Part shown: positions 6,480-28,112 of the stretch, in pieces | Layout: every line of letters starts with the position of its first letter | Position numbering within the stretch: position 1 is the first letter of the stretch | From: Vibrio breoganii | GTDB taxonomy: Bacteria; Pseudomonadota; Gammaproteobacteria; Enterobacterales; Vibrionaceae | NCBI RefSeq assembly: GCF_001677275.1 | Contig: NZ_CP016177.1 | Location: 1,178,001-1,242,000, forward strand | DNA length: 64,000 bases | Direction of reading: 5' to 3' | Made by a program: the position numbers and the translations under genes | The notes under the pieces: model-generated | What the model was told of the DNA's origin: nothing | The model's input: the letters and a program-made list of their open reading frames with translations, nothing else | Database searches by the model: none

Positions 6480-6770
6480 CTAAGCGATCTGCGTCATCTC
6501 ATTTAGAATAAATTGGTCCACTGCGCCGTCGGTTGCTGCCATATAGTCAGCTAGGTGCTGGTTACTCATGTGAGTTTGCCATAGTTCGCGAGAGACCCAG
6601 TTTTCATAGAACATGAAGTGAGCAGGGTTTTCGTTATCTTGATGCAGGTCGTAGTTGATACAACCCTCTTCTGCACGAGTCACATCGATAAGTTTAAGCA
6701 ACTCAGCTTTTACCAATTCAATTTTGTCTTCTTTAGCAATGATGTTTGCAACGATAGTTAGCTTAGTCAT
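6480..6770 (-). CDS. Antibiotic biosynthesis monooxygenase (ABM) domain protein, YgiN-like
   Basis: A 96-residue single ABM domain: TIVANIIAKEDKIELVKAELLKL, then RAEEGCINYDLHQDNENPAHFMFYENW and a helical end. ABM proteins form dimeric ferredoxin-like barrels; members such as YgiN act as quinol monooxygenases or handle small aromatic compounds. ATG 6770 is preferred over 6824 because AAGGGGA lies about nine bases upstream. A 23-base palindrome upstream (6858-6880) may be its operator. Confidence 0.83.
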   Translation of the reverse strand: MTKLTIVANIIAKEDKIELVKAELLKLIDVTRAEEGCINYDLHQDNENPAHFMFYENWVSRELWQTHMSNQHLADYMAATDGAVDQFILNEMTQIA

Positions 6771-6857
6771 ATGATGTTCCCCTTGGAATGTGTTTGTGTT
6801 GACGGGGAGAATAATAGTGTGCAATCACCATTAAGTGAACGGCTATATATTTGAATT

Positions 6858-6880
6858 ATTATCAAATTTAAATTGATAAT
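6858..6880. promoter_or_regulatory. AT-rich palindrome upstream of ABM gene
   Basis: ATTATCAA and TTGATAAT are perfect inverted arms around seven bases (ATTTAAA). It lies about 90-110 bases before the ABM gene start. The form resembles operators of LysR-, MarR- or related regulators; no regulator gene is adjacent, so the protein is unknown. Confidence 0.45.
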
Positions 6881-6913
6881 ATTGGTGAGAATTGGTCTAC
6901 CGTGTTTACCGAG

Positions 6914-6941
6914 CAAAAAAATGGCTCCACTAAGGAGCCAT
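6914..6941 (-). terminator. Terminator after roxA
   Basis: ATGGCTCC (6921-6928) pairs with GGAGCCAT (6934-6941) over a five-base loop; the minus strand continues with seven T. A textbook intrinsic terminator. Confidence 0.85.
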
Positions 6942-6977
6942 AAAGTCACTGTTAACAGATTCTGTTAATCGCTGTGG

Positions 6978-8123
6978 TTATTCGGTATCGATATACCAAT
7001 AACCCTTGTTGATTAAGTCGCAAAGTAGCGATACATTCGCCGCCGCAATGCCACTTGGGAAGTCATCAACAGTAAGCTGCTGTTGGCCGCAAAGTAGCTT
7101 TATGATTGAACTGTCTTCTTCGGAGACCTTGATCACTTCTCCGTTAATATAGGCAATGCTTTCATCCTGCTCATGATACAGAGCGCGTAAGCCAGCTACT
7201 TTTTCAATGCTGCCACCAGACAGAAGATGATTTGCCACTTCTTCACTTTCCCACAAAGGTTCAGGGGTAATGATATTTAACTGATGACGCGACTGACTTA
7301 GCAAACAACCCATAAAGTCATTCACGCGGTGCTCATCTTCCATTGATGCTAATAGCATCTCCGTTAAGGAATTTAGGTCGCTAGTGCTAATCTGACCAAA
7401 GTTATCCTGCGTCTTCATCTCTGGCTTGTGCAGGTGCACATCACCAACATCGTTGGCTAAGATGTAGTCTGCGAAATTGCTGATCAGCTCTTGTTCTTTT
7501 GGAGAACGAAAGCCGATAGAAAAGCTCATTGACGGTTCAAGTGCAAACCCGTCATGTGGAAACCCTGGTGGTATATATAAGATGTCCCCTGGCTCAAGGA
7601 CTTGGTCAATGATGGCTTCAAAGCCTTCGATTTGACGTAAAGCACTGTGTTGATTGGTTTCAACATATTGGCCTTCATCCTTTGCGCCAACGCGCCAATG
7701 GCGTTTACCACTGCCTTGCACAATAAACACATCATACTGGTCAATATGCGGACCCACACCGCCATCCTTGACTGAGTAGCTGATCATCAAATCATCGAAC
7801 AACCACTGTGGCATGGCCTTAAATGGTTCAACAAGCTCCGCGGCACCTTGATGCCAGTGGTTTGCAGCCTGAACGATGATTGACCAGTTCGTTTCATCTA
7901 GTGAAGCATATTTATCTTCGTTAAAAGGACCATGCTCTGCGATCCACTCACCATCTTTATTAGAAACATAACGCGAGTCGACTTCTTCTTCCATAGTCAG
8001 TCCCGCTAGCTCTTCAGCGGAGATAGGGTCTTGGAAGTTAGCAAAACCGCCCTTAATGATAGTGGGTTTCTTTTGCCAGAATTCAGCCAAAAACTGTTGC
8101 AGTGAAATCGTCAATTGATACAT
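6978..8123 (-). CDS. roxA: RoxA (YcfD), ribosomal protein uL16 arginine 3-hydroxylase
   Basis: A 381-residue JmjC/cupin dioxygenase, against 373 in E. coli YcfD. It uses Fe(II) and 2-oxoglutarate to hydroxylate an arginine of ribosomal protein uL16. The iron ligands are visible as PHIDQYD (His and Asp near residues 125 and 127) and the second histidine in GFPHDGF near 187; KRHWRVG precedes the jelly-roll strands. A winged-helix C-terminal region follows. ATG 8123 is preferred over the longer in-frame start at 8150 because AAGG lies upstream at good spacing and the family begins MYQL. Confidence 0.9.
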   Translation of the reverse strand: MYQLTISLQQFLAEFWQKKPTIIKGGFANFQDPISAEELAGLTMEEEVDSRYVSNKDGEWIAEHGPFNEDKYASLDETNWSIIVQAANHWHQGAAELVEPFKAMPQWLFDDLMISYSVKDGGVGPHIDQYDVFIVQGSGKRHWRVGAKDEGQYVETNQHSALRQIEGFEAIIDQVLEPGDILYIPPGFPHDGFALEPSMSFSIGFRSPKEQELISNFADYILANDVGDVHLHKPEMKTQDNFGQISTSDLNSLTEMLLASMEDEHRVNDFMGCLLSQSRHQLNIITPEPLWESEEVANHLLSGGSIEKVAGLRALYHEQDESIAYINGEVIKVSEEDSSIIKLLCGQQQLTVDDFPSGIAAANVSLLCDLINKGYWYIDTE

Positions 8124-8194
8124 GTTAAACCTTGATAATGTAAGCCACACTTGTGTCTGGCTATGGGTATAAATTTGATGGTTTGTTTGTCTTT

Positions 8195-8223
8195 AGATGC
8201 CCGAAGTGTGTTATCGGGCATCT
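8195..8223 (-). terminator. Hairpin after TrmH-like gene
   Basis: AGATGCCCGA and TCGGGCATCT form a ten-base stem with a nine-base loop just beyond the 3' end of the methyltransferase gene. The T-tract is weak. Confidence 0.6.
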
Positions 8224-14776: not shown

Positions 14777-15302
14777 TCTCTTTTTGCATATGTTTGTAAA
14801 TATAAATACCGGTGAGCAAGGTGAAGATCAGCGTCGCGGCGAGCAAGCCAAAGACCTTGAAGTTAACCCAAGTATCAAGCGGCAGATTGAAAGCGATGTA
14901 GACATTCAGGACGGCGCAACCTGTAAAAAACAGCGTCCAAGCCCAATTAATCTTATTCCATACACTGTCAGGCAAAGTGATCTCTTTGCCAAGCATTCCC
15001 TTGATAACCGGCTTTCCGATTAATTGAGTGACGATAAGCCCTATTGCAAATACAGCATAAACTAGGGTTACCTTCCACTTTATGAAGTTGTCATCATGCA
15101 GAAATAGGGTCATGCCACCTAAAATGGTGACCATAATAAAAGTGATGAGCTGCATCTTTTCAACTTTTTTGTACATTACGTACGTCACAATGAGTTGAAG
15201 GGCAGTGGCAACGATTAATGCCCCTGTAGCGGTATAGATGTCGTACATCTTGTACAACACAAAAAATATTATCAGGGGAATAAAATCGAGTAACTGCTTC
15301 AT
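14769..15302 (-). CDS. yciB: YciB (IspZ), inner membrane septation protein
   Basis: A 177-residue membrane protein with five to six hydrophobic segments, starting [23 protein letters not shown] and containing [27 protein letters not shown], the family signature. YciB is linked to cell-envelope synthesis and septation through interaction with division proteins. E. coli YciB has 179 residues, so ATG 15302 is preferred to the longer frame starting at 15380. First gene of the four-gene operon. Confidence 0.92.
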
Positions 15303-15460
15303 TGTTCTTATTGAAATTAGCGTTTGAATCAGTCTACCTAATTGAACACATGAAATATAGCGTTGACCGGCCTTACACACCCATTAACTCTCATTAAATA
15401 CTTTGCGTCATGACAGTTTTATTTCAGACGACGCTTAATTAATCGAAAATAATTGACCTA

Positions 15461-15505
15461 GGTAGAGTAAACATTCTACCATGTGGGTAGAGTAAACATT
15501 CTACC
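15461..15505. promoter_or_regulatory. Tandem palindromic operator of the TetR regulator
   Basis: Two identical copies of GGTAGAGTAAACATTCTACC at 15461-15480 and 15486-15505. Each has inverted arms GGTAGA and TCTACC around eight bases, and the copies start 25 bases apart. They end just before the Shine-Dalgarno and start of the TetR gene, so the regulator probably represses itself and the following oxidoreductase. Confidence 0.82.
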
Positions 15506-15516
15506 TAGAGGGGATT

Positions 15517-16026
15517 ATGGTAAAAGATGAAATTGCAGGTCGTTTAGAGATCGCGTTCAGTCAGCACGGCTTTGCACAAATGAGCGTCGCTGAACTTAAA
15601 GTCGCCTCTGGTGTGAGTTTAAGAACTCTATATCGCTATTATCCATCGAAAGAGTCAATGGTGATTGGTGCGCTCGAGCATCGCCATCGGCGATATCTTG
15701 CCTTTTTAGATAATGAGTCATTTGAAAATGGAACAGAGTCGGTCATTGCACTATTCGACGCTTTAGCCCATTGGATGAGCGAAGATGCGCCAAATGGTTG
15801 CTTGTCAATGAACGCATTTTCGGCATTTCCAAATAATGACGAGGTGAACGCCGCGGTACAACAGCATAAAGAACAACTGGTTCAACTTTTAGCCCAAAGA
15901 AGCACAAGACCTGACTTGGCAATGGCGTTGTTTTTACTACATGAAGGCGTATCTCTAGCATGGCCAACTATGGGCGACCAAGCCATAGTGGCAGCGAAGG
16001 ATATGGTTAGGAAACTTTTAAAATGA
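15517..16026 (+). CDS. TetR/AcrR family transcriptional regulator
   Basis: A 169-residue regulator with an N-terminal helix-turn-helix (about residues 20-45, VAELKVASGVSLRTLYRYYPSKESM) and a ligand-binding helical domain. A strong AGAGGGG precedes the ATG. The gene sits behind a duplicated palindrome that is almost certainly its own operator, and its stop overlaps the start of the quinone oxidoreductase gene as ATGA, the usual layout for a repressor and the enzyme that acts on its inducer. The inducer is unknown, probably a reactive electrophile or quinone. Confidence 0.88.
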   Translation: MVKDEIAGRLEIAFSQHGFAQMSVAELKVASGVSLRTLYRYYPSKESMVIGALEHRHRRYLAFLDNESFENGTESVIALFDALAHWMSEDAPNGCLSMNAFSAFPNNDEVNAAVQQHKEQLVQLLAQRSTRPDLAMALFLLHEGVSLAWPTMGDQAIVAAKDMVRKLLK

Positions 16027-17062
16027 ATACACAAACTATGTATGGCGTCCAAATGATCGGTCACGGAGATTTCGATCAGCTGCAGTATAGAACGGATATT
16101 GAAGTGCCCACTCCTACCAAGGGAGAGGTGTTAATCAAAGTGTCTGCGGCAGGGGTGAATAACACTGACATCAACACCAGAATTGGTTGGTACTCAAAGA
16201 ATGACGCCGACGGTGATGATACCTCGTGGTCAGGTGATGCTTTTCGCTTTCCAAGAATTCAAGGCGCGGACGTTTGTGGCGTCATCGTTGCCGTGGGCGA
16301 TGGTGTCGAGACGACGAGAATTGGCGAGCGAGTGATCGTTGAACCTTGCCTTAATGAAGCCAATGGTGAAGCCTTGCCAAGCCCTTGGTATTTTGGCTCA
16401 GAATGTGACGGTGGATTTGCCGAGTTTACTAAGGTGGCATCGCGTTATGCCCATCATGTAAACACCCAACTCTCTGACGTAGAGCTTGCCTCATTTCCTT
16501 GCTCTTATTCAACGGCAGAGAACATGCTCACTCGCGCCAATGTAGATGCATCTGACACGGTTTTGGTGACAGGGGCTACAGGTGGTGTAGGGTCGGCGGC
16601 TATTCAGTTGGCAAAGGCGCGTGGTGCTACGGTCATTGGCGTAACCAGCCGTTCCAAAGAAGCGCTTTTGAAGGGCATCGGCACTGATGAAGTGGTTTTT
16701 AGAGACCAAGATCTAGTATCAATCCTAGGGGTCAACAGCGTTGATGTGGTGATTGATCTTGTTGGTGAAGCTGGCCGACATTGCTTGATGTAATGAAGCC
16801 CAAGGGGCGCTACGCTGTTTCAGGCGCTATTGCCGGCGCTGATGTGACATTGGATCTTCGCACCTTGTATCTAAAGGACCTAAGCTTCTTTGGTTGTACA
16901 GTTATCGAGCCAGAAGTCTTTCCAAACTTAGTGAAACGCATAGAGAGTGGCCAGATCAAACCTCTAGTGGCTATGACCTTTCCTTTGCAACAAATTGAGC
17001 AAGCACAGCTAGCATTTATGGAGAAAAAGCACTTAGGGAAGATAGTACTAACTCTAGATTAG
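16023..17062 (+). pseudogene. Zinc-type alcohol dehydrogenase / quinone oxidoreductase, frameshifted
   Basis: Medium-chain dehydrogenase/reductase of about 346 residues, split by one missing base. The first part (16023-16793) has the GroES-like domain and the nucleotide-binding VLVTGATGGVGSAAIQLAKARG; it breaks after VVIDLVGEAG and stops at 16791-16793. The +1 frame continues at once with PTLLDVMKPKGRYAVSGAIAG and the usual end KKHLGKIVLTL. Adding one T near 16772 restores GEAWPTLLDVM, the expected family sequence. It is co-transcribed with the TetR gene. A sequencing error is a real alternative; otherwise the enzyme has lost its C-terminal third and is likely inactive. Confidence 0.83.
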
Positions 17063-17126
17063 CCCCTTGCGCTAATCGTGTCATGATGATTAACTGGCTA
17101 AATAAATCAGTGTGTTAGGAGTGACA

Positions 17127-17753
17127 ATGAGTAAGGAAACTGCGCGTCTTTATCACGTTTATGATCCCATGTGCGCATGGTGCTGGGGTTATAAACCAAC
17201 GTGGCTACAACTAGAGTCAGCACTAAAAGACAAACTAGAGATAGTGTATCTGGTCGGTGGGCTAGCCTCTGACTCAGATATCCCTATGCCAATGGAGATG
17301 CGTATCCAGATTGCCTCATACTGGAATAAAATTGAGTCCTTACTTGGGACTCAATTTAACCACGACTTTTGGACATCGAACACGCCGCGTCGTTCTACGT
17401 ATCCCGCCTGTAGAGCCATGCTTTCGGCAAGATTGCAAGGTGCTGAGAAGCAGATGTTAACTGCCATTCAACACGCCTATTATCTTCAAGCTAGAAATCC
17501 AAGTGACGTATCAACATTAATCGAGCTCGCCCGTGAAATTGGACTCAATGTCGAGCAGTTTGAAAGGGATTTAGGTTCAGCCGAGATAGAGCAAGCACTG
17601 ATGCAGGAACTTAGGTTTGCCCGCTCAATAGGTGGCAATAGCTTTCCTTCGCTGTTTGTTGTCAAAGGGGAGTCTGTTACTGAGCTACCGATAAACTACC
17701 AAGATGCCGCAGTCACGCTTAATCAGATAGATCATGTTTTAGCGAAAATTTAG
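17127..17753 (+). CDS. DsbA family protein (thioredoxin-fold, CAWC)
   Basis: A 208-residue cytoplasmic DsbA-like protein. The active-site pair is in YDPMCAWCWGYKP (Cys 16 and 19) and the cis-proline region is NSFPSLFVV. No signal peptide is present. Such proteins, related to FrnE and 2-hydroxychromene-2-carboxylate isomerases, act as thiol oxidoreductases of unknown substrate. The ATG at 17127 is chosen because TTAGGAG sits five bases upstream; the longer frame starts at GTG 17112. Confidence 0.86.
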   Translation: MSKETARLYHVYDPMCAWCWGYKPTWLQLESALKDKLEIVYLVGGLASDSDIPMPMEMRIQIASYWNKIESLLGTQFNHDFWTSNTPRRSTYPACRAMLSARLQGAEKQMLTAIQHAYYLQARNPSDVSTLIELAREIGLNVEQFERDLGSAEIEQALMQELRFARSIGGNSFPSLFVVKGESVTELPINYQDAAVTLNQIDHVLAKI

Positions 17754-17852
17754 AGTAATTTTTTGGGAAACAGCGAGTACCTTAAAATAGCATGCTACAT
17801 TTATTGTGAATCCAACTGCAATTTTACTCTATACCTTACTAAAGGGGTGATT

Positions 17853-18098
17853 ATGTTAGGTGAGAAACACTCTCTCGAGAATGACTTTCCAGAACTACAA
17901 GACGTTATCAAGCAACTGGTTGAAACCAATGAAGCCTTTGCCCAAGACAACAAGACCTATACTGCATTAGATAAAGAAATTCGTGTACTAGAGCTAAACG
18001 GTGATCCTATTACCGACGAAGAAATGCATAAGATGAAACACGACAGAGCAGTGTTGAAAGACTCCCTATATCAGCGTCTAGTCGCCGCTAAAGGCTAG
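17853..18098 (+). CDS. YdcH family (DUF465) small protein
   Basis: An 81-residue highly charged coiled-coil protein: HSLENDFPELQDVIKQL, then NKTYTALDKEIRVLELNG and KDSLYQRLVAAKG. It matches the YdcH/DUF465 family, whose function is unknown. ATG 17853 follows AAGGGGTG at good spacing; the upstream 30 codons of the frame are not conserved. A paralogue lies at 38343-38603, with the same LEVxGxPIxDxxMHxxKxxR layout. Confidence 0.9.
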   Translation: MLGEKHSLENDFPELQDVIKQLVETNEAFAQDNKTYTALDKEIRVLELNGDPITDEEMHKMKHDRAVLKDSLYQRLVAAKG

Positions 18099-18115
18099 TT
18101 TAAAATGTTATAGAT

Positions 18116-18146
18116 AAGGCCACTATTGCAGTGGCCTTTGTTGTTT
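18116..18146. terminator. Terminator between ydcH-like and SDR genes
   Basis: AAGGCCACT (18116-18124) pairs with AGTGGCCTT (18130-18138) with a five-base loop, followed by TGTTGTTTTT. It serves the plus-strand gene and possibly the converging SDR gene. Confidence 0.8.
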
Positions 18147-18150
18147 TTGA

Positions 18151-18957
18151 CTACTTAAATCTTGCCAACATCTCATCTAACGTTGACACAACACTATTAC
18201 ATTTAGCTGCGTTCATAGCATCCGCATGGGGGTTGCTAAAACGGCCAATATCATTATCAAAATACTGTCCTGATGCATCGGCAAATTCTTCTGATAGCGC
18301 AGCACGAACTAGGATGCTCGCACCAATAGAAAGATCGCCTCCGGCAACGCCATACGCTTCCTTCACCATTTTACTACCCAGAAATGAAGCTGGGTTTACC
18401 GCTATGATTGCAGGGCCGTCCGCGCCTAGGGATTGAGCCAGGGTTCTTGTCCACATGGTAATCGCCAGCTTACTTTGCGCGTAGGCCTCGCCTTCTGAAA
18501 GCGATTTTCCACCCAATAGAGCGTCGATATCAACCGTAGATTGCGCTGCTGAAGATAGGTTCACCACGCGACTCTCACCATTCATTAGAGGGAGTAACTG
18601 TTGCGTGAGCAAGTAAGGTGCAAGTGTATTGACTGCAAAGCGTACATCTAAGTTATCAGCAGTTACTGCATTCGGAACGCTGTAAACACCGGCATTGTTA
18701 ATCAATGCATCAAGGTGCGAATGATCGTGAGTTATTTTATCAGCCAGCGTTTTAACATCAGCTAAACGAGAAAGATCGGACTCGTAGGTCTCTATTTTGC
18801 TAGCACCTGGAAGACTAGAAAGTTCATCTTGTACTTTTTTAAGCTTCTGAGGATTACGACCATGTATCAATAGATGATGGCCTTGCTCGGCGAGTGTTTT
18901 GGCAGTCTCAAGGCCAATACCGTCGGTAGCGCCAGTGATTAGTATGATTTTCTGCAT
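18151..18957 (-). CDS. Short-chain dehydrogenase/reductase (SDR)
   Basis: A 268-residue classical SDR. The cofactor motif TGATDGIGLETAKTLAEQG is at residues 7-25, NNAGVY near 85, and the catalytic YAQSKLA near 155 (YxxxK); the size resembles retinol-dehydrogenase-like members. ATG 18957 follows GAGGATAG. The substrate is not predictable. The dispersed 24-base motif lies 22-45 bases upstream of the start and may affect its promoter. Confidence 0.88.
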   Translation of the reverse strand: MQKIILITGATDGIGLETAKTLAEQGHHLLIHGRNPQKLKKVQDELSSLPGASKIETYESDLSRLADVKTLADKITHDHSHLDALINNAGVYSVPNAVTADNLDVRFAVNTLAPYLLTQQLLPLMNGESRVVNLSSAAQSTVDIDALLGGKSLSEGEAYAQSKLAITMWTRTLAQSLGADGPAIIAVNPASFLGSKMVKEAYGVAGGDLSIGASILVRAALSEEFADASGQYFDNDIGRFSNPHADAMNAAKCNSVVSTLDEMLARFK

Positions 18958-18978
18958 GGTGACTATCCTCAAATTAAG

Positions 18979-19002
18979 CTCAAAAGGTCAACAGACCCTA
19001 GT
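18979..19002. repeat. Dispersed 24-base motif, copy 2
   Basis: Contains GGTCAACAGACCCTAGT; it matches the copy at 3827-3850 in 23 of 24 positions and lies just upstream of the SDR gene. The reverse strand contains TTGACC, so it could contribute a -35-like element there. Confidence 0.55.
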
Positions 19003-19105
19003 TATGAATCAGTTAGATATTAGTTGCTAGATCAATAAGATAACACCTTGATTGACAGATTTAATTAGCTGGATCCGCGAAACAGTTTAAAGAATTCGTT
19101 AATAA

Positions 19106-20131
19106 TCAATCTACATCTCCGAGGGAAAGGTTTTCTTCAATCGGCGGAGTAATCTCAATGATCTTCAAAAGAGACATTGGTGGGTAAAGGTTGAGCACTT
19201 TAGCAATGTTAATATTGACGGTGTAGGCAAAATCTTCCACACGCAATACCGGCAGTTCTCCTGCCGTTGTATCTGTTGAGAATAGCGTGTCTATTTGCAG
19301 TGCGGCTACTTTACCCACTTCATAATCGTTGGCCGCAATAGACATGAGCGCATGGGAGTCATGAACCATGTTCTCATAAGGCGTGATTATCGGCAGAGAG
19401 GCTTTTAGGGCGCAGTCGATCAAGATTGCTCCGTGCTTCTCTAAATAAGTGCTAGAACCAAGATAGATAAAATCGACATCTTGCTGCTTGAGCGTTTGAA
19501 TACCTTGTTCAATGGCCTGCATGGGCTCAGCATTAGAATTTAATGGAACTGAAACGAGCTTAAAACCATGCTGTTCACTTAGGGCTTTGAGTTCTTTTAC
19601 TTTATTGAGCGAATTCTCCGCACTGGGCTCAAACAAAACCCCCAACACTTTAAAGTTTGGCATGTATTGCTTGATGGCATTGATGTTGACGGCTTCAGGT
19701 ACTCGGCTGTACACACCAGTAATATTGCGTCGACCAGTATGTGAGAAATCATCGATAATATCAGAGGCGATAGGGTCAGATACTTGGGTGAAAATCACAG
19801 GAATCGAACTGTCTATGCCTTTGGTGTCATGCTTCTTGCCTGCGATTTCGATGGTCGTTTTTGTTCCCCATGTTACTACGGCATCCGGTCTTTCTTTATT
19901 GATTTGCGCTCTGATGGACGCCAGATTATTGGGGTCACCGTGGGCATTTAAAAGCTGTAACTGGATATCGTGGGGAGAGTTGTTGAGAGCATCATTTAGC
20001 CCCTTACAAACGGCTTCACAACCGTCCCATAGCACCATAGTCACGGTATATTGGCTAGAAGCACTCACTCTTATGCAGCTAGCACAAACGAGTAGGACAA
20101 AGGTCATGAATTGAATGACGGCTTTGCTCAT
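19106..20131 (-). CDS. Periplasmic binding protein of the ABC_sub_bind (TrpX-like) family
   Basis: A 341-residue secreted protein with a signal peptide (VIQFMTFVLLVCASCIRVSAS, cleavage near residue 25). The mature part is a two-lobed periplasmic binding fold: YTVTMVLWDGCEAVCKGLND, KERPDAVVTWGTKTTIEIAG, IPVIFTQVSDPIAS, NITGVYSRVP and DFIYLGSSTYLEKHG, as in PF04392-type proteins (TrpX and relatives). No ABC permease or ATPase gene is nearby. Its ATG overlaps the stop of the preceding sensor-MFS gene (ATGA), so the two proteins are made together and may form a sensing or uptake pair. The ligand is unknown. Confidence 0.82.
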   Translation of the reverse strand: MSKAVIQFMTFVLLVCASCIRVSASSQYTVTMVLWDGCEAVCKGLNDALNNSPHDIQLQLLNAHGDPNNLASIRAQINKERPDAVVTWGTKTTIEIAGKKHDTKGIDSSIPVIFTQVSDPIASDIIDDFSHTGRRNITGVYSRVPEAVNINAIKQYMPNFKVLGVLFEPSAENSLNKVKELKALSEQHGFKLVSVPLNSNAEPMQAIEQGIQTLKQQDVDFIYLGSSTYLEKHGAILIDCALKASLPIITPYENMVHDSHALMSIAANDYEVGKVAALQIDTLFSTDTTAGELPVLRVEDFAYTVNINIAKVLNLYPPMSLLKIIEITPPIEENLSLGDVD

Positions 20132-22845
20132 GATGAAGACTCCAGCTTGCGTTGAGGTATTTGCAGTAGAAGACTGAGCAATACTCCACCTATGAAGAAC
20201 CACGCAAGAAAGTGTAAAGTCGCGGCATAGGAGTAGTAACCGCTGAGCACCCCCGCAATCAGCAGTCCAAAGATTGCCCCGCCTCGTTCAATTACGCGCA
20301 TTAACCCAAGCACATTTGAAGCTCCTAGATGGGCAAGGGGACCTTCAGCGAGTCGCATGACCCTATCAGTGAGAGGTCCCATGCATAGACCCATACACAA
20401 ACCACAAAGCATACACACCCATACCATGCCGACAAAGCTAGGACTCATCGACACCAACAGTAGGGCGATAGAGGTGATCAGTAGTGATAGGGGAAGTAGA
20501 CCTGGGGCAACCTGCAACCTTTGCGGGAGCTTGCCTAACAAAGAGCCACCTAATATATAGAACAGAAAGTACAGTAACATAGCCCTAGATATGTCGACGA
20601 TTGACACGTGAATTTCATTTAACTGCATTGCTAAAAGGTAGGTAATGAAGACGTGGTCAATCAGGGCTAGAGGTAACATGTAGCCAATAATGAGGGCAAG
20701 ATATTGACGATGAGTGAAACACTCTAGCATCTTAATGGATAGCCCTTGAGAGCTTGAGCGAGTTACCTTTGGCTTTCCTTTGCATACAAACTGCGCAATA
20801 AGCACTATAGCGACTGCGGCAAATAGGGCACAGATTATAAACGCGACTCGTGCTCCCACATACTCAGCCAGTACACCCCCTAAAGCTGTACCCGCAAATA
20901 CACCAGCCGTTGCGGTTGCCCGCAATTGGCTATTGGCTATCGCTCGGGATTGTTTAGGTAACTGATCTAATGCGTAGTCTTGGCAAGCCAGTAAGGCTAG
21001 AACGAACCCAATTCCGTTGATGGCATTGGCAAAAATCAGCTGCGGAATATTGGTGGAATAGAAGAAGGCGATTTTCGCCAGTATGGTCAGTGACGCAGAA
21101 GCGAGAAAGAGGTGTCTGTATCCTAGTTTGATGCTGAGCGGTCTTGCAAAAGGTGCGACAACAAGGCCGGCTATCATGTAGCTGACTAGAGGCAGTGTCA
21201 GCAACAAGTTGGCGTTGACGGCTCCGACTTGAGGTAAAAGTTCTTTACTGAAAATAAGAAAAAAAGACAGGGGTAATTCATCAGCCAGCGAGATAAGAAA
21301 TAGGGCGAAGCGTACATCCGATAGGTGAGCAAGGCGAAGTACCTTTGGTCTAGGAAAGGAAAACTGCAGTCGTGGGCTTGCGGTAATGCTAATCTTTATT
21401 ATTCGTTGAGGAACAGAAATGATGCTCCTAACTAAGCGTCGACCGAGATCAAGGGCATGCTGGTTCAGCTGATCCAATTGCTTAGTTTGCTGATGATCAG
21501 AGGTCCCCTTATAGACTAAAGAAAAATCAAACTGAGCTTGTTTACGAGCAATGATGGCCAAGGCATTAAGAGGCTTGGTAATTGAAACGGTAAGCATTAA
21601 AGCCACTAGTTCGAACCCCAATAGCAACACCACCATCAACAGCGTTAAGAAATCCAGTGAATGAGATAAAAGCTGTTTATCTATCTGAGCGCTATTGGTT
21701 TGAAAAATTAATTTGGCTTGATCTTGATGATTAAGCTGTAGGGTCTTCTCAATGCTGTTGGCAAAGCCCGTTGACACTTGCCCTACGGTTGTAGACCAAT
21801 GTTGCGTTTGGATTGTTAATCCTTCAATTTCATCAAATAGATCAACAAGGTGTGTAAAGTAATCTCTGTCTTGCGCGAGGGTTACAAGGGGAATATTGAG
21901 ATACATAGCATGCTCAATTTCCTTGGCAACTTCGTTGGTGATCAGTTGGGTTCGCAGGTTTATTTCTGGGGATATGGAGCGTTGAATTTCATTATGTCCA
22001 TAGGCGGAAAGAACAAGCGCTCCAATCAGTACCAGAGAAAAAACCACTAAGCCCATTTTCTTTAGAATTGTCCTAGTAAAGCCTGTTTCATCTATTCCGA
22101 GTATTTTTGTGTCTGTGAGGTCTTTAATGGAATAAGGGGCCGGACCATTACAAGGCGGTATAGTAAATGAGTGCACAAGAAGAGTGTAGTTGCCCAATGC
22201 TGTTTTATAGTGGTTGGCAACTTCTTCATTGACACCGTTTCTACTGTGTAACTGTTCGACAATTCGCTTACTGATTCCACCAAGTACAACGATACCGATC
22301 AGCGAACCAGTGAGCCAGATCATGCTTGTCCAAGCGAGGGTGGTTTCTTTAAACATCTGTTGGCGCAGCGCCATATCTTTAGTGTCGTATTGAATTAACA
22401 GTATTGCTATTTCATGCTTGTGACTGTTTAGTATCACCCGTCCAACAAGGCCTTGCTCTTCTGTAGTGAGAACTGGCCAACTGTCGTCGGAAGCCCTTAT
22501 CCACTGGTGAACCGTTCTTTGCGAAACAGAAATTTTTCCGCCCGTTGCACTAGCGACCATAATGCCTGTTGGATTGATGAGATACAGGTTTTGAATGTTT
22601 GGGTCGCTAGATTGTGCCCGCTGTAAGAGGTGTTCTTTGTTGCGGACCGATGATACCGGCAGCCCCATTTCTGCAAATGACTCAATAGGCTGGGCCGCAA
22701 TACTTAGCGTGGTTATTATGCGTTTCTGGGTTAGATCATTTAAGAGAGAAGCGTGCTGTAAAATAAACAAGCCTGCCAAAGAAAAGAGAATAACTCCTAG
22801 AATTAGGGTAAAAGACACCACTATTTTGCGTTGAAAACTCACCAC
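20128..22845 (-). CDS. Two-sensor, HAMP and MFS transporter fusion protein
   Basis: A 905-residue membrane protein of uncommon layout. Residues 10-30 and 174-192 are membrane segments around a periplasmic sensor-like domain (Cache-type size); 262-282 and about 392-415 enclose a second periplasmic domain; a HAMP-like linker follows (ITKPLNALAIIARKQAQFDF, about 415-465). From about 508 to 900 there is a full MFS-like transporter (12 hydrophobic segments), with R-K-rich loops such as RPLSIKLGYRHLF and CMGPLTDRVMRL. It has no kinase, cyclase or methyl-accepting domain, so the sensors seem to act on the transporter directly. The start is one of two adjacent GTG codons; the Shine-Dalgarno is weak. 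It is transcribed with the binding protein gene downstream. Confidence 0.8.
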   Translation of the reverse strand: MVSFQRKIVVSFTLILGVILFSLAGLFILQHASLLNDLTQKRIITTLSIAAQPIESFAEMGLPVSSVRNKEHLLQRAQSSDPNIQNLYLINPTGIMVASATGGKISVSQRTVHQWIRASDDSWPVLTTEEQGLVGRVILNSHKHEIAILLIQYDTKDMALRQQMFKETTLAWTSMIWLTGSLIGIVVLGGISKRIVEQLHSRNGVNEEVANHYKTALGNYTLLVHSFTIPPCNGPAPYSIKDLTDTKILGIDETGFTRTILKKMGLVVFSLVLIGALVLSAYGHNEIQRSISPEINLRTQLITNEVAKEIEHAMYLNIPLVTLAQDRDYFTHLVDLFDEIEGLTIQTQHWSTTVGQVSTGFANSIEKTLQLNHQDQAKLIFQTNSAQIDKQLLSHSLDFLTLLMVVLLLGFELVALMLTVSITKPLNALAIIARKQAQFDFSLVYKGTSDHQQTKQLDQLNQHALDLGRRLVRSIISVPQRIIKISITASPRLQFSFPRPKVLRLAHLSDVRFALFLISLADELPLSFFLIFSKELLPQVGAVNANLLLTLPLVSYMIAGLVVAPFARPLSIKLGYRHLFLASASLTILAKIAFFYSTNIPQLIFANAINGIGFVLALLACQDYALDQLPKQSRAIANSQLRATATAGVFAGTALGGVLAEYVGARVAFIICALFAAVAIVLIAQFVCKGKPKVTRSSSQGLSIKMLECFTHRQYLALIIGYMLPLALIDHVFITYLLAMQLNEIHVSIVDISRAMLLYFLFYILGGSLLGKLPQRLQVAPGLLPLSLLITSIALLLVSMSPSFVGMVWVCMLCGLCMGLCMGPLTDRVMRLAEGPLAHLGASNVLGLMRVIERGGAIFGLLIAGVLSGYYSYAATLHFLAWFFIGGVLLSLLLQIPQRKLESSS

Positions 22846-22981
22846 AAATCACCGAAGTTTGATGGAGCGAGCGATACTTTTTACGACGAGTACGCGAGAG
22901 AAATGCGCTGGTTATTTTTTGAGCGATAGAGAAGGGTAGTTCGCAATGAGAATAGAAACAAGTCTAGGAAATATTTGAAAT

Positions 22982-23009
22982 AAAAAAGCTGGGCGTTATA
23001 GCCCAGCTT
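22982..23009 (-). terminator. Terminator after dicarboxylate/amino acid symporter gene
   Basis: AAGCTGGGC (22986-22994) pairs with GCCCAGCTT (23001-23009), followed on the minus strand by TTTTTTA. It lies 24 bases beyond the stop. Confidence 0.85.
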
Positions 23010-23032
23010 GATATTGAGTGTTGTCGTATCAG

Positions 23033-24307
23033 TTACGCTTGTTGCTTCTGAAGCTCAACTTGTGCTTCTTCTTCAATTAGAGCATCAACGATAACAGCAC
23101 ATGCCGCATCACCAGTGATGTTTAGCGCTGTACGAATCATGTCAAAGATACGGTCTAGAGCGAACAGTAGTGGTAGGCCTTCAATTGGAATACCTGCTGC
23201 TAGCAATACTGCAACGACAAGGAACGATGGCCCTGGTACACCTGCTTGACCAACTGCACCCAATGTAGATGTGGCGATGATAGCGATGTATGCACCTAGG
23301 CTTAGATCGATGCCGAACATTTGCGCGAAGAAGATAGCCACCAAGCCGTAGTAGATTGCGTTACCAGACATGTTGATGGTTGCGCCAAGAGGCAATACGA
23401 AAGAAGCCGTAGAGTTCTTAACACCTAGTTCATTCTCAACCGTGTTCATGGTTACAGGAAGTGTTGCCATAGAAGAGGCTGTTGAAAGAGCAACCGCTTG
23501 TGGTTTCTTCATAGCGACTAGGAACTTCTTAGCAGAAGTCTTAGTGAATACGTGAACCAAAATAGGGTAGACAACGAAACCAAAGATTAAGATAGCGGCA
23601 ACGTAAACCAAGAATAGCTTGAACACTACCATCAGTGCGCCAAAACCGAACGAACCAACCGCATCAGCCATTAGACCGAATACGCCTAAAGGAGCGATCA
23701 GCATAACCTTGTTGATCATCCAAACCATTGCATCAACAATAGCATTTACGCCATTGATAAGAGGGTCGCGACGCTCTTTTTCTAGGCTAGAAACAGCAAT
23801 ACCAAAGAAAAGACAGAAAACTAGAATTTGCAGTATGTTTGCTTCATTCAAAGACTGGAAGAAGTTGGTTGGGATCATGCCAGTAACTGTGTCCCAGAAG
23901 CCTGGAAGAGCGCCTTGGGCTGCGTATTCTGCAGAGAACATGCTTTCTACAGAAGCAACATCGATACCGGTACCTGGTTGGAATAGGTTACCCATGACCA
24001 AAGCAAGTGCTACCGCTAGTGCAGACGTTAAACCGAAGAAGCCAAGCGTTGTTAGGCCAACTTTCCCAGCATTAGAGCTGTTACCTAGACCCGCAGCACC
24101 AGAGATCAGTGCAACAGCAACTAGAGGAATAACCAACATCTTGATCAGATTGATGAAGATAGTACCTAGGGGAGCAAATACAGTTGCGCTCTCACCCATC
24201 ATTGCACCTACTAGGGTGCCGACAATCATCGCAATAACAACTTGCACACCAATATTGCCGAGTAAACTTTTATCTTTTAACACTTCCTTTACCTTTTGTG
24301 CTAACAA
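23033..24307 (-). CDS. Dicarboxylate/amino acid:cation symporter (DAACS family)
   Basis: A 416-424-residue transporter of the glutamate/aspartate/dicarboxylate symporter family. The two re-entrant loops are marked by ALSTASSMATLPVTM (HP1) and the TM7 motif INMSGNAIYYG, with ALDRIFDMIRTALNITGDA (TM8) near the end. It imports an anionic amino acid or C4-dicarboxylate with Na+ or H+; the exact substrate is not certain. The longest frame starts at TTG 24307 without a Shine-Dalgarno; GTG 24283 has AAAAGG upstream and may be the true start. A strong CRP-like site lies about 110 bases upstream. Confidence 0.88.
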   Translation of the reverse strand: MLAQKVKEVLKDKSLLGNIGVQVVIAMIVGTLVGAMMGESATVFAPLGTIFINLIKMLVIPLVAVALISGAAGLGNSSNAGKVGLTTLGFFGLTSALAVALALVMGNLFQPGTGIDVASVESMFSAEYAAQGALPGFWDTVTGMIPTNFFQSLNEANILQILVFCLFFGIAVSSLEKERRDPLINGVNAIVDAMVWMINKVMLIAPLGVFGLMADAVGSFGFGALMVVFKLFLVYVAAILIFGFVVYPILVHVFTKTSAKKFLVAMKKPQAVALSTASSMATLPVTMNTVENELGVKNSTASFVLPLGATINMSGNAIYYGLVAIFFAQMFGIDLSLGAYIAIIATSTLGAVGQAGVPGPSFLVVAVLLAAGIPIEGLPLLFALDRIFDMIRTALNITGDAACAVIVDALIEEEAQVELQKQQA

Positions 24308-24416
24308 TTCGAGGTATTGCCGAATATAAGAACTTATATATGGCCCTATGCCCTATATTTAGGGGTGCTTCTTTGTACTTTTATTCGAGGTTACGTGCAG
24401 AGGAAGTGGGAATAAA

Positions 24417-24432
24417 TGTGATCCTGATCACT
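24417..24432. promoter_or_regulatory. CRP (cAMP receptor protein)-like binding site
   Basis: TGTGATCCTGATCACT, with A/T-rich flanks AAA and ATATTT, matches the CRP consensus TGTGA-N6-TCACA in all but the last base. Located upstream of the symporter gene, consistent with catabolite control of dicarboxylate or amino acid uptake. Confidence 0.65.
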
Positions 24433-24606
24433 ATATTTTTAGGGGCATTGATAAACTCAGGCGACTGAATGAGTAATTTATTATGTTTTTGTGTGATAAA
24501 TGGACAAGGCAATCGTTTGCGTCGTGCAAGATCTATACATACATTAAACTTGGTTATGAGTGCAGTTGTAATGAGTATGTTGCATATACTGGGATGGGGT
24601 AATGAC

Positions 24607-24641
24607 AAAAAAGCCACATTCCGCTTTCGCAAAATGTGGCT
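24607..24641 (-). terminator. trp operon terminator
   Basis: AGCCACATT (24612-24620) pairs with AATGTGGCT (24633-24641); on the minus strand the hairpin is followed by TTTTTT. It lies 23 bases beyond the trpA stop. Confidence 0.85.
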
Positions 24642-24663
24642 CTAGATACTCAGTAAAACAGAG

Positions 24664-25470
24664 TTACTTTTGAGTCGCTGCCTTCATATTGGTGACGAAA
24701 GTCGCTAATTCGCCAAGCATCTTCTCAGCATTCTCAACATTGTCCTCAATGATTTTCACTACAGCGGATCCAGAGATCGCGCCAGCAGCGCCTGCTTCAA
24801 TGGCTGTTTTCACTTGCTCAGGTTGAGAGATACCAAAGCCTAGTAGTGCTGGTGGAGCATCAAACTTAGCTAAGCGCTCAAGCATGTGATCAACGGGCAT
24901 ATTTGCTTTCGTTTCTGCGCCAGTAACACCTGCGCGAGAAAGCAGATAAGTGTAACCACCACCCAGCTCTGATACTTGCTTTAGTGTCTCATCCGTTGCG
25001 GTTGGAGGCGCGATGAAGATGGCATGTACGCCCGCTTTCTTAGCCGCAATATTGAACTCCTCACTTTCACCGGTTGGTACATCGGCAATCAGCACAGAAT
25101 CAACGCCCGCTTTCGCACAGGCTTGATAGAAGGAGTCGATACCGTTTGCAAACACTAGGTTTGCGTACACCAGCAGACCGATAGGAAGATCTGGATGTTG
25201 CTCTCGGATTTGAGCGATTAACTCGAAGCAAATAGTCGGCGTCGTCTTTGAATCTAAAGCACGAATATTAGCGCCTTGAATTGTCGGGCCATCGGCTAAT
25301 GGATCTGAGAATGGAATGCCTAATTCAAGCGCGTCAGCACCAGCATTGGCCAGCGTCTGCATGATTTGCAAAGACAATTCAGGATTAGGATCGCCAATGG
25401 TAACGAAAGGAACAAATGCACCTTGTTTTTTTGCATCTAAACGCTCAAATAGCGCAGCGTAACGGTCCAT
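24664..25470 (-). CDS. trpA: TrpA, tryptophan synthase alpha subunit
   Basis: A 268-residue TIM barrel that cleaves indole-3-glycerol phosphate to indole and glyceraldehyde 3-phosphate; indole is channelled to TrpB. Key catalytic residues are visible: the glutamate in [16 protein letters not shown] and the aspartate loop of that segment, plus [10 protein letters not shown] at the phosphate site. Its ATG overlaps the trpB stop by one base. Last gene of the operon, followed by a strong terminator. Confidence 0.96.
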
Positions 25471-26660
25471 TACATCTCTCCCTTTTCTTTCAAAATATCA
25501 TGTACTGTAAAGATATCTTTATCACCACGACCTGATAGGTTAACCACTAACAGTTGTTCTTTTTCTGGCTCATCAAATGCCAGTTTTAATGCGTAAGCAA
25601 GTGCATGTGCTGACTCAAGAGCAGGGATGATGCCCTCTTTACGCGCCAAGATTTGGAATGCATCTAGTGCTTCGTCATCGGTAACTGCGCCGTATTCTGC
25701 GCGACCTGTCGCATTAAGGTGTGCGTGCTGTGGGCCCACAGATGGGAAATCTAGGCCTGCAGATACTGAGTAAGATTCTTCAATCTGACCGTGAGTATCT
25801 TGCATCAATGGTGCTTTCATACCAAAGAAGATGCCTAGCTTGCCGTGCTTAAGAGGCGCGCCGTGCATGTCTGTATCCAGACCTTTACCTGCAGGCTCTA
25901 CACCAATAAGACGAACATCAGACTCTTCGATGAAATCAGAGAACATACCAATCGCATTTGAACCACCGCCAACACAGGCAATCACTGCGTCAGGTAGACG
26001 GCCTTCGCGAGCCATGATCTGATGCTTAGTTTCTTCACCAATCATGTGCTGGAATTCACGCACGATTGTTGGGAATGGGTGAGGACCTGCTGCAGTACCG
26101 AGTAGGTAGTGCGCGTCTTCGTAGCTTGCAGACCAGTCACGTAGTGCTTCGTTACAGGCATCTTTCAATGTTGCTGAGCCAGAGTGTACAGGGATAACTT
26201 CTGCACCCATTAGACGCATGCGGAAAACGTTAGGGCTTTGACGTTCTACGTCTTTAGCACCCATGTAAACGCGACATTTAAGACCAAGCAGTGCACAAGC
26301 CAGTGCTGATGCAACGCCGTGTTGACCCGCGCCAGTTTCAGCGATGATTTCAGTCTTACCCATACGCTTAGCAAGAAGCGCTTGGCCAAGTACTTGGTTA
26401 GTTTTATGAGCGCCGCCGTGAAGCAAATCTTCACGCTTTAGGTATAGCTTGGTTTTCGTGCCTGTTGTCAGGTTACGAGTCAGCGTTAGCGCAGTTGGGC
26501 GACCTGCATATTCTTGCAGTAGCTGCATGAATTCTGCGTGAAACTCAGGGTCTTCTTGTGCATCAATGAAAGCTTGCTCAAGTTGGTCAAGCGCCGGCAC
26601 GAGGATCTGTGGAACGTATTGTCCACCGAACTCTCCAAAGTAGGCATCTAGTTTTGCCAT
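25470..26660 (-). CDS. trpB: TrpB, tryptophan synthase beta subunit
   Basis: A PLP enzyme of 396 residues that joins indole and serine to give tryptophan. The PLP lysine is in [20 protein letters not shown], the glutamate site in [11 protein letters not shown], and the phosphate loop in [12 protein letters not shown]. Length equals E. coli TrpB. Sixty bases separate it from trpCF, a small gap with an imperfect hairpin (CTATCT/AGATAG). Confidence 0.97.
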
Positions 26661-26720
26661 CGTAATTTCCTTAAATTCGGTATCGCTATCTCAGCAAATG
26701 CTCAGAGATAGATGTTGTAA

Positions 26721-28112
26721 TCAATAATTTCTGATCGCGGCAAAAGCTTGTTCTAGCTTTTCACGAGATTTCTTACCTGGTTCAACTTCTACGCCGGAGT
26801 TTAGATCAAGACCCAAACAGCCAAGCTGTGATGCCTGTGCAATGTTGTCTGCATTTAAGCCGCCCGCTAGCATCACATTAGGATTGTCTATTTTCGACCA
26901 ATCAAATGCCTTACCCGTACCGCCGCTTTGAGTGCCTACTTTTGAGTCGAGAAGGTGGCGATCAACGTTCCCTACAAAAGAGGGCACTTCGTCCATTACG
27001 CCATAGGCTTTCCAGATCTCTGTGCTGTCATCGAGTTGCTCACGCAAGTCAGCGACAAAGGCTTCATCTTCATCACCGTGCAATTGGATAGCATTTAATT
27101 CTAAGGATTTTGCCATCTCGCAGATGTAATCAGCGCTTTGGTTTTGGAAAACACCCACATAGCGAAGAGGGGCGCCGCTCATCGTAAGGCGAGCACTTTC
27201 TTTATCTACCTTGCGCTTTGACTTGTCAGCAAAGATAAGTCCGCCATAGACAGCACCTGCATTATAAGCCTTTGCAGCGTCATCAGCGTGAGTCAAACCG
27301 CAAACCTTGTTTTCACCCAGCAGTACTTTACGCACCGCCAGTTCAATGTTGTCTTCTGACATCAGGGAACTACCAATTAAGAAGCCATTGGCAAACTTAG
27401 CGAGGTCGCGGACTTGCTGATGGTTGTAGATACCAGACTCAGAAATTACAGTGGTGCCTTGTGGTAATTTCGGCGCTAATTCTTTGGTGCGATTTAAATC
27501 GATAGTTAGGTCGCGTAGATTACGGTTGTTGATGCCAACCACTTTTGCTTTCAATTCGATAGCACGTTGCAACTCTTCTTCATTACTTACTTCAGTAAGA
27601 ATGCCCATACCTAAAGAGTGGGCAATTTGTGCCAGCTCGCGATATTCATCGTCGTTAAGTACAGATAACATCAACAAGATTGCATCCGCTTGATAATGAC
27701 GAGCCAGATAAACCTGATACGGCGCTATCATGAAGTCTTTACATAGAATTGGCTGCTTGGTTTGCTTCTTTACCTGAGGTAAGAAATTAAAGTTGCCTTG
27801 AAAGTACTTCTCATCAGTGAGCACTGAGATAGCACTCGCATGATTGTTGTAGACCGAGGCGATGTAATCCAGATCGAAGTCATCACGAATCAAGCCTTTC
27901 GATGGAGAGGCTTTCTTACACTCAAGGATAAACGCAGTGTTATCGCCAGAAAGCGCATCGTAAAAGCTGCGATCTGATTGAGTCAGCGATGCCTGAAAGG
28001 TGTCTAGTGGTTGCGCTTTCTCGCGCTCTTCAACCCAAATCGCCTTGTCAGTAACGATCTTAGCCAGCACTTGTGCCATGTCTTTGTTTTGTTGAGAGAT
28101 ATGCTCTGACAT
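26721..28112 (-). CDS. trpCF: TrpCF, bifunctional indole-3-glycerol phosphate synthase / phosphoribosylanthranilate isomerase
   Basis: A 463-residue fused enzyme. The N-terminal IGPS domain has AFILECKKASPSKGLIRDDF (catalytic lysine), PILCKDFMIAPYQV and ISESGIYNHQQV; the C-terminal PRAI domain starts near residue 260 with NKVCGLTHADDAAKAYNAGAVYGGLIF (catalytic cysteine) and has LAGGLNADN near the end. Together they convert phosphoribosylanthranilate to indole-glycerol phosphate. This fusion is normal for enterics and vibrios. Two bases separate it from trpD. Confidence 0.97.
   Translation of the reverse strand: MSEHISQQNKDMAQVLAKIVTDKAIWVEEREKAQPLDTFQASLTQSDRSFYDALSGDNTAFILECKKASPSKGLIRDDFDLDYIASVYNNHASAISVLTDEKYFQGNFNFLPQVKKQTKQPILCKDFMIAPYQVYLARHYQADAILLMLSVLNDDEYRELAQIAHSLGMGILTEVSNEEELQRAIELKAKVVGINNRNLRDLTIDLNRTKELAPKLPQGTTVISESGIYNHQQVRDLAKFANGFLIGSSLMSEDNIELAVRKVLLGENKVCGLTHADDAAKAYNAGAVYGGLIFADKSKRKVDKESARLTMSGAPLRYVGVFQNQSADYICEMAKSLELNAIQLHGDEDEAFVADLREQLDDSTEIWKAYGVMDEVPSFVGNVDRHLLDSKVGTQSGGTGKAFDWSKIDNPNVMLAGGLNADNIAQASQLGCLGLDLNSGVEVEPGKKSREKLEQAFAAIRNY

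What the first reader, a model, noticed from the sequence alone, without database searches (positions are those of the whole stretch)
19106..22845. Operon of a sensor-HAMP-MFS fusion and a periplasmic binding protein without an ABC transporter
Seen: a 905-residue protein joins two periplasmic sensor-like loops and a HAMP-like linker to a full MFS-type transporter, and its stop overlaps the start of an ABC_sub_bind-type periplasmic protein. No kinase, cyclase, or ABC permease is near. Known: HAMP links usually pass signals to kinases or cyclases; PF04392 proteins usually feed ABC transporters. Inference: the binding protein may deliver ligand or signal to the sensor loops, which gate the MFS part, a possible undescribed regulated-transport system.
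Basis: partly seen in the sequence, partly recalled or inferred. Interest (0 to 1): 0.7.

Follow-up and report, generated by a model that had tools for sequence, protein, structure and literature searches.

The report
Sensor-headed transporter with binding-protein partner
A two-gene unit in a marine Vibrio makes a transporter-like membrane protein with two built-in outside sensors plus a small-molecule catcher protein; the same pair recurs in distant bacteria, often inside a toxin-injection machine's gene cluster or beside signalling enzymes, so it looks like a sensing module rather than an ordinary nutrient importer.

Summary
A Vibrio protein of 905 aa joins two TM-flanked periplasmic loops, a linker and an MFS domain, and overlaps by 4 nt a 341-aa PF04392 binding protein; no ABC permease is near. 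The pair is kept by purifying selection at the same site in V. comitans. In a sample of 148 Vibrio genomes, 43 (44 loci) hold the module, each with a PF04392 gene next to it (44 of 44): 36 lie inside a type VI secretion (T6SS) core operon, 6 beside VgrG-DUF6931-PAAR, and only the window and V. comitans in neither. Of 17 loci outside Vibrio, 9 have SpoIIE, adenylate-cyclase or GGDEF-EAL neighbours, 2 VgrG, 6 none recognised. The first sensor is often a separate gene, and fusion arose at least twice, so the parts probably form one complex. The T6SS form appears to be the vtsABCD 'transporter proteins' of fish-associated Vibrionaceae (mapping inferred). Best reading: a binding-protein-triggered receptor whose signal passes through the linker into an MFS bundle acting as transceptor; whether that bundle signals, transports or both is not shown. 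HAMP and Cache matches in the window are sub-threshold and no ligand is known.

The parts
20128..22845 (-). 905-aa fused protein: sensor loop 1, sensor loop 2, linker, MFS domain (GTG start)
   Evidence: 81% identical in V. comitans
22246..22845 (-). residues 1-200: TM, periplasmic Cache-like loop 1, TM; homologous to the separate ~265-aa sensor subunit of split relatives
   Evidence: E 1.3e-9 to the separate subunit in L005; dCache_1 E 0.0027, sub-threshold; structure matches mostly PDC/Cache sensors at Z 7-9.8 but from a low-confidence model, and no Foldseek match at E <= 0.001
21586..22056 (-). residues 264-420: TM, periplasmic loop 2, TM (second sensor)
   Evidence: hydropathy, alignment A1; no Pfam hit
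21421..21585 (-). residues 421-475: HAMP-like cytoplasmic linker
   Evidence: aligned with a region scoring HAMP E 8e-5 in L030; no Pfam hit in the window; residues 421-508 have net charge +10, consistent with the cytoplasmic side
20131..21321 (-). residues 509-905: MFS domain, closest curated families mostly drug and metabolite exporters; TM11 R-x-x-E-R-x-G motif
19106..20131 (-). 341-aa binding protein, PF04392; Sec-type signal sequence by eye only
20128..20131 (-). ATGA stop/start overlap (probable translational coupling)
   Evidence: a 4-nt overlap is also seen in 44 of 59 other loci by mechanical ORF ends
22986..23009 (-). terminator-like hairpin with T-run between the upstream transporter gene and the pair: the pair is probably its own transcription unit
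   Evidence: 5 terminator-like sites found, 3.9 expected; this one has the most pairs (9). No promoter-like site was found just upstream of the GTG (6 found in the region, 7.0 expected)

Best explanation
The two genes encode one envelope sensing unit. SHOWN: the binding protein and the sensor-MFS protein are inherited together; the first sensor and the sensor-MFS part are separate genes in many relatives and fused here. INFERRED: the PF04392 protein binds a small periplasmic solute (ligand unknown) and docks on the two Cache-like loops, much as LuxP docks on LuxQ (recalled). The loop movement passes through the HAMP-like linker into the MFS bundle, which works as a transceptor: its conformational or transport state is the signal. 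In relatives the state is read by co-encoded partners (SpoIIE phosphatase, adenylate cyclase, GGDEF-EAL protein, or T6SS with its FHA protein). In the window no partner is co-encoded, so the output is either a partner encoded elsewhere or the MFS activity itself.
For: A PF04392 gene beside the sensor-MFS gene in 44 of 44 Vibrio loci (Pfam on all 44) and in distant Proteobacteria and one Thermodesulfobacteriota plasmid. MFS and binding-protein identities correlate, r 0.97 over 60 loci and 0.80 over 16 divergent representatives (part of this is shared ancestry). Fused and split forms interleave in the tree: window next to L059 and the VgrG-linked split clade, T6SS 855-aa form next to split L057 and L058, so sensor subunit and MFS protein probably touch. 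Neighbours: T6SS core in 36 of 44 Vibrio loci, VgrG operon in 6 of 44, SpoIIE in L029, L030, L034, L129, cyclase in L058, L061, GGDEF-EAL in L035, L062, L063. In L030 and L034 an extra copy keeps the sensor part but its TM bundle no longer scores as MFS, and it lies beside SpoIIE.
Against: No direct evidence of docking, ligand or output. Window HAMP and Cache matches are below Pfam cut-offs or absent; profile comparison of the sensor alignment with one dCache domain gave no support (0.4% probability); both AlphaFold models are poor (pLDDT 43.6 and 34.7) and Foldseek found nothing at E <= 0.001. The MFS half is the best-conserved part of the window protein, which would also fit a working transporter. 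The window's genome has no TssK and no co-encoded output. 6 of 17 loci outside Vibrio show no recognised output gene (L033, L054, L056, L059, L060, L128). L060 showed no binding protein on its 8.4-kb contig, and L055 has neither large sensor loops nor a binding protein.
Confidence: 0.5

Rival explanations
1. Regulated exporter: the MFS domain is a working exporter, and the binding protein plus sensor loops switch it on or off in response to an outside solute. Signalling neighbours in relatives respond in parallel.
For: Closest curated MFS families are mostly drug and metabolite exporters, though some importers are listed too; MFS half is under the strongest constraint; invariant charged residues R640, E643, R644 (L013 numbering) in TM11 of the 15-row alignment; ligase genes (D-Ala-D-Ala-ligase-like or glutamate-cysteine-ligase family) sit beside the pair in several relatives and could make an exported compound.
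Against: The motif-A aspartate present in 9 of 15 rows is replaced in the window and V. comitans, but also in L030, L034 and L035, so this counts little; degenerate MFS copies beside SpoIIE in L030 and L034; no ligase by the window pair.
Confidence: 0.27
2. Binding-protein-dependent MFS importer: the PF04392 protein delivers its solute straight to the MFS domain, analogous to TRAP systems, and the loops are docking platforms.
For: Constant pairing and no ABC permease by the pair, whereas the genome's other PF04392 gene has permease-like and ATPase-like genes next to it (named by eye).
Against: MFS domain is closest mostly to exporters; two extra sensor loops and a HAMP-like linker are not needed for delivery; signalling neighbours unexplained.
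Confidence: 0.1
3. Decaying remnant: in the window clade, cut loose from T6SS, the pair is a leftover with no function.
For: Long branch of the window clade in the MFS tree (1.65); no TssK in the genome; faster evolution than flanking trp genes.
Against: Intact in two species at the same place, dN/dS 0.07-0.18.
Confidence: 0.05

Closest known systems
vtsABCD genes of V. anguillarum / Aliivibrio wodanis T6SS (PMC8861277, passages; the 2009 source paper is not held)
   Same: Vibrio T6SS clusters hold a sensor-MFS protein, a PF04392 protein and an SBP_bac_3-like protein, in 8 of 36 after an ATP-grasp-type gene, between ClpV and FHA; the paper calls vtsABCD 'transporter proteins' with roles in stress responses and hcp expression.
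   Different: The mapping of vtsA-D to these four genes is my inference, not a sequence comparison. The window pair is outside any T6SS, its genome lacks TssK, and no ATP-grasp or SBP_bac_3-like gene was seen beside it (by eye).
LuxP-LuxQ type receptors (recalled)
   Same: Periplasmic binding protein working with a membrane protein that has periplasmic sensor loops and a HAMP-type linker.
   Different: Output domain is an MFS bundle, not a histidine kinase.
UhpC and DctA/DcuS-type transceptors, CbrA-type transporter-kinase fusions (recalled)
   Same: A transporter fold used in sensing.
   Different: Here sensor loops and linker precede the transporter domain, and a binding protein goes with it; no kinase.
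TagQRST of P. aeruginosa H1-T6SS (passage in PMC10482370)
   Same: Envelope sensing parts encoded with a T6SS that act upstream of FHA.
   Different: TagTS is ABC-transporter-like; no homology tested.
TrpXYZ-like ABC system of the same genome
   Same: Its binding protein is also PF04392.
   Different: It has permease-like and ATPase-like genes next to it (by eye); the window pair does not.

Membership tests
PF04392 binding protein | score above the curated cut-off | tested here: met
   114.9 bits vs 25.9
ABC importer with PF04392 binding protein | permease and ATPase genes adjacent | tested here: not met
   none among ORFs at 15000-27000 (gene names by eye)
TrpX equivalog (NF041285) | score above 390 bits | tested here: not met
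   131.3 bits
MFS transporter | MFS_1 profile match above cut-off over nearly the whole profile | tested here: met
   90.1 bits vs 33.4, profile 4-323 of 347
MFS transporter | transport activity | not testable with these tools
   no assay; motif A altered in the window clade and some relatives
HAMP-linked signalling proteins | HAMP profile match in the linker | tested here: inconclusive
   window 0 families; L030 HAMP E 8e-5, 23.3 bits vs cut-off 25; L013 HAMP_2 E 0.075; L031 and L033 none
Cache sensor domain | Cache profile match or fold in the periplasmic loops | tested here: inconclusive
   loop 1 dCache_1 E 0.0027 below cut-off, loop 2 none; VIA rows mostly Cache, Z 7-9.8, from a model with pLDDT about 50-66 there; Foldseek 0 matches at E <= 0.001; hhalign 0.4%
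vtsABCD-type T6SS module | homologous sensor-MFS plus PF04392 pair | tested here: met
   profile A1 finds both sets; PF04392 in 44 of 44; trees
vtsABCD-type T6SS module | location in a T6SS cluster | tested here: not met
   window neighbours are not T6SS (by eye); TssK 0 hits in the genome
LuxPQ-type two-component receptor | histidine kinase output domain | tested here: not met
   Pfam shows MFS_1 plus a sub-threshold dCache_1 match only
LuxPQ-type receptor | binding protein docks on periplasmic loops | not testable with these tools
   no complex prediction available
UhpC-type MFS sensor | sequence membership and kinase partner | not tested
   considered from recall only

The most novel reading that the evidence does not exclude
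A general, undescribed receptor class: periplasmic PF04392 protein plus tandem Cache-like loops plus HAMP-like linker plus an MFS bundle that serves mainly as the signal-transmitting membrane domain, plugged into different outputs (T6SS, SpoIIE partner switching, cAMP, c-di-GMP), with the window showing a fused stand-alone version freed from T6SS.
Probability: 0.4. Interest if true: 0.85.

Novelty: new variant of a known kind. Interest (0 to 1): 0.62.

Why it matters
If right, an MFS domain is placed downstream of a sensor and HAMP-like linker, the reverse of transporter-to-kinase fusions, and the unit would be a candidate environmental input for T6SSs in a good share of Vibrio species (36 of 44 Vibrio copies, in a sample of 148 genomes, lie in a T6SS core operon). 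It makes a testable question of what outside solute informs these systems, and the window copy, free of T6SS, allows the module to be studied alone.

Tried and rejected
A single-protein scan of genome contigs returned only V. comitans (the tool may leave out the window's own or near-identical records). A profile scan of viral contigs found no relative. AlphaFold with a two-row alignment gave poor models; the model of residues 1-497 is used only as weak support (Foldseek none at E <= 0.001; VIA list, includes unrelated rows such as a flagellar cap and Mrs2), and I did not search with the 905-aa model. hhalign of the sensor alignment against one dCache domain gave no support. The idea that VP1391 of V. 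parahaemolyticus is this protein was dropped: it is described as a possible enhancer-binding protein (passage). Chance adjacency was rejected: PF04392 has only 2 copies in the genome. Paper searches for the architecture and its SpoIIE and T6SS links turned up no description of the module beyond PMC8861277; for most listed papers I saw only the listing, for six I saw passages, and most subscription journals are not held.

Rows left out before counts: L017 (broken MFS gene, binding protein present), L055 (no large sensor loops, no binding protein), L060 (contig edge, no binding protein seen), L128 and L129 (binding protein present; in L129 on the opposite strand, one gene away) are not in the 60-entry set. 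L120 and L127 in that set are the same sequence, so it holds 59 distinct loci. Over-long binding-protein frames (L054, L057) were cut to the last 345 residues in the trees. The TM11 motif is absent in L059, L061 and the broken L116 (57 of 60). The binding protein of L062 matches my own profile (E 9e-11) but no Pfam family. Of 24 plasmid records listed I opened seven (H1, H2, H9, H11, H13, H15, H17) and H19, eight in all.
Full report
OBSERVATION. The 905-aa protein starts at GTG 22845 and ends at 20128; the binding protein most likely starts at ATG 20131 and is 341 aa, overlapping the stop by 4 nt. Pfam gives MFS_1 over residues 514-833 and PF04392, both well above cut-off, and a sub-threshold Cache match. 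Hydropathy shows four TM segments around two loops before the MFS helices. A terminator-like hairpin lies between the upstream gene and the pair, so the pair is probably its own unit. Upstream is a dicarboxylate-transporter-like gene and then trp genes; downstream an SDR-like gene (names by eye).

The organism is a Vibrio: the one hit in named genomes is V. comitans, 81% identical over residues 1-903, with the same kind of flanking genes. dN/dS is 0.073 for the MFS half, 0.184 for the sensor half and 0.092 for the binding protein, against 0.011-0.022 for three flanking genes and 0.079 for the SDR gene: maintained, but faster than housekeeping neighbours. The genome has one other PF04392 gene, followed by genes that look like an ABC permease and ATPase (by eye).

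RELATIVES. The first search with the window protein found 8 of 148 Vibrio genomes at E <= 1e-30. The distant ones, about 22-25% identical, turned out to be three-gene operons: a ~265-aa TM-loop-TM protein resembling the window protein's N-terminus, a ~700-aa sensor-MFS protein, and a binding protein. A profile of 15 such proteins (A1) then found, at E <= 1e-60, 43 of 148 Vibrio genomes (44 loci), 11 of 398 genomes of a phylum sample and 6 of 369 of a class sample, the window included. These are samples drawn from larger groups.

In Vibrio a binding-protein gene is next to the sensor-MFS gene in all 44 loci, and all 44 match PF04392. Two of the MFS genes, L017 and L116, are broken. 36 of 44 lie inside a T6SS core operon with the order TssF-TssG-ClpV-MFS-PF04392-SBP_bac_3-like-FHA-TssJ-TssK. 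8 of these 36 carry an additional ~384-aa gene before the MFS gene; it matches D-Ala-D-Ala ligase in L119 and is annotated so, or as ATP-grasp, in V. tubiashii and V. crassostreae plasmids. 6 of 44 are followed by VgrG-DUF6931-PAAR (Pfam for L013; the others by similarity). The window and V. comitans fall in neither class; the window genome has no TssK.

Outside Vibrio I examined 17 loci. Neighbours: SpoIIE phosphatase in L029, L030 (with sub-threshold HAMP matches), L034 (about 600 bases upstream) and L129 (opposite strand); dCache adenylate/guanylate cyclase in L058 and L061; GGDEF-EAL in L035, L062 and L063; VgrG in L028 and, one gene away, L057; none recognised in L033, L054, L056, L059, L060 and L128. 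In Aureimonas (L129) a glutamate-cysteine-ligase-family gene follows the MFS gene. In Nitratidesulfovibrio, another phylum, a PF04392-type gene overlaps the MFS gene, with a CesT-type secretion chaperone gene upstream. Two relatives do not fit: L060 (no binding protein on a short contig) and L055 (short loops, no binding protein).

EVOLUTION. Identities of the MFS proteins and of their binding proteins correlate at 0.97 over 60 entries (59 distinct) and 0.80 over 16 divergent representatives, and the trees share their main clades. In both, the window clade joins L059 and the VgrG-linked split clade, while the T6SS 855-aa fused form groups with the split forms L057 and L058. Fusion or fission of the first sensor therefore happened at least twice, which argues that sensor subunit and sensor-MFS protein act together (L059's split state is judged from its 682-aa length at a contig edge). 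The sensor subunit is also found by the profile of the sensor-MFS protein, so the tandem sensors look like a duplication.

MECHANISM. I take the pair as a receptor unit: binding protein to Cache-like loops to HAMP-like linker to MFS bundle. The co-inheritance is shown; docking, ligand and signal flow are inferred by analogy with LuxP-LuxQ (recalled). For the MFS part I favour a transceptor role because of the frequent signalling and T6SS neighbours and because L030 and L034 keep extra copies with the sensor part but a TM bundle that no longer scores as MFS, next to SpoIIE. Against this, the MFS half is the most conserved part of the window protein and its nearest families are mostly exporters, so a regulated exporter remains a strong rival. 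Cache and HAMP assignments rest on weak scores in the window itself, on a low-confidence model whose VIA matches are mostly Cache sensors while Foldseek gave none at E <= 0.001, and on one relative for HAMP; one direct profile test failed.

KNOWN OR NEW. PMC8861277 (passages) says that the A. [quoted passage not shown] anguillarum; the 2009 source is not held. The gene order makes it likely that these are the ATP-grasp, MFS, PF04392 and SBP_bac_3-like genes, but I could not compare sequences, and another paper uses vtsA1-D1 for different T6SS genes (PMC11790442, passages). None of the NCBIfam models matched by the sensor-MFS proteins tested reaches its cut-off, and the sensor subunit matches none. 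I found no account of the module as a family, of its stand-alone form, or of its SpoIIE, cyclase or GGDEF-EAL associations in the searches listed under Tried and rejected.

VERDICT.

Noticed in passing
L092-L125, L031, L032: All 36 T6SS-embedded copies are followed by a second, SBP_bac_3-like protein of about 230-260 aa before FHA; its role is unknown.
   Followed up: partly
L119:7238-8389, L062:11139-12362, L129:5223-6794: A ligase-type enzyme (D-Ala-D-Ala-ligase-like ATP-grasp, or glutamate-cysteine-ligase family) recurs beside the module in separate lineages, possibly making a small molecule for it.
   Followed up: partly
L030:12136-14163 and L034:2184-4391: Second copies with the sensor part recognisable but a TM bundle that no longer scores as MFS, next to SpoIIE phosphatase genes.
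   Followed up: partly
L017 (G059) and L116 (G011): Broken copies of the sensor-MFS gene (interrupted reading frames) with the rest of the operon present.
   Followed up: no
L055:6494-8215 (annotated CDS 6713-8215): Azospirillum MFS protein of the same subfamily (TM11 motif kept) with N-terminal TM segments but no large sensor loops and no binding protein.
   Followed up: partly
L128/L131 (Nitratidesulfovibrio vulgaris plasmid): PF04392-MFS pair downstream of a DUF3626 gene and a CesT-type type III secretion chaperone gene: possible link to another secretion system.
   Followed up: no
L013:15111-16151: A 346-aa gene after PAAR in a VgrG-linked locus matches nothing in Pfam (E <= 0.1) or NCBIfam (E <= 0.001); possible T6SS cargo or adaptor.
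   Followed up: no
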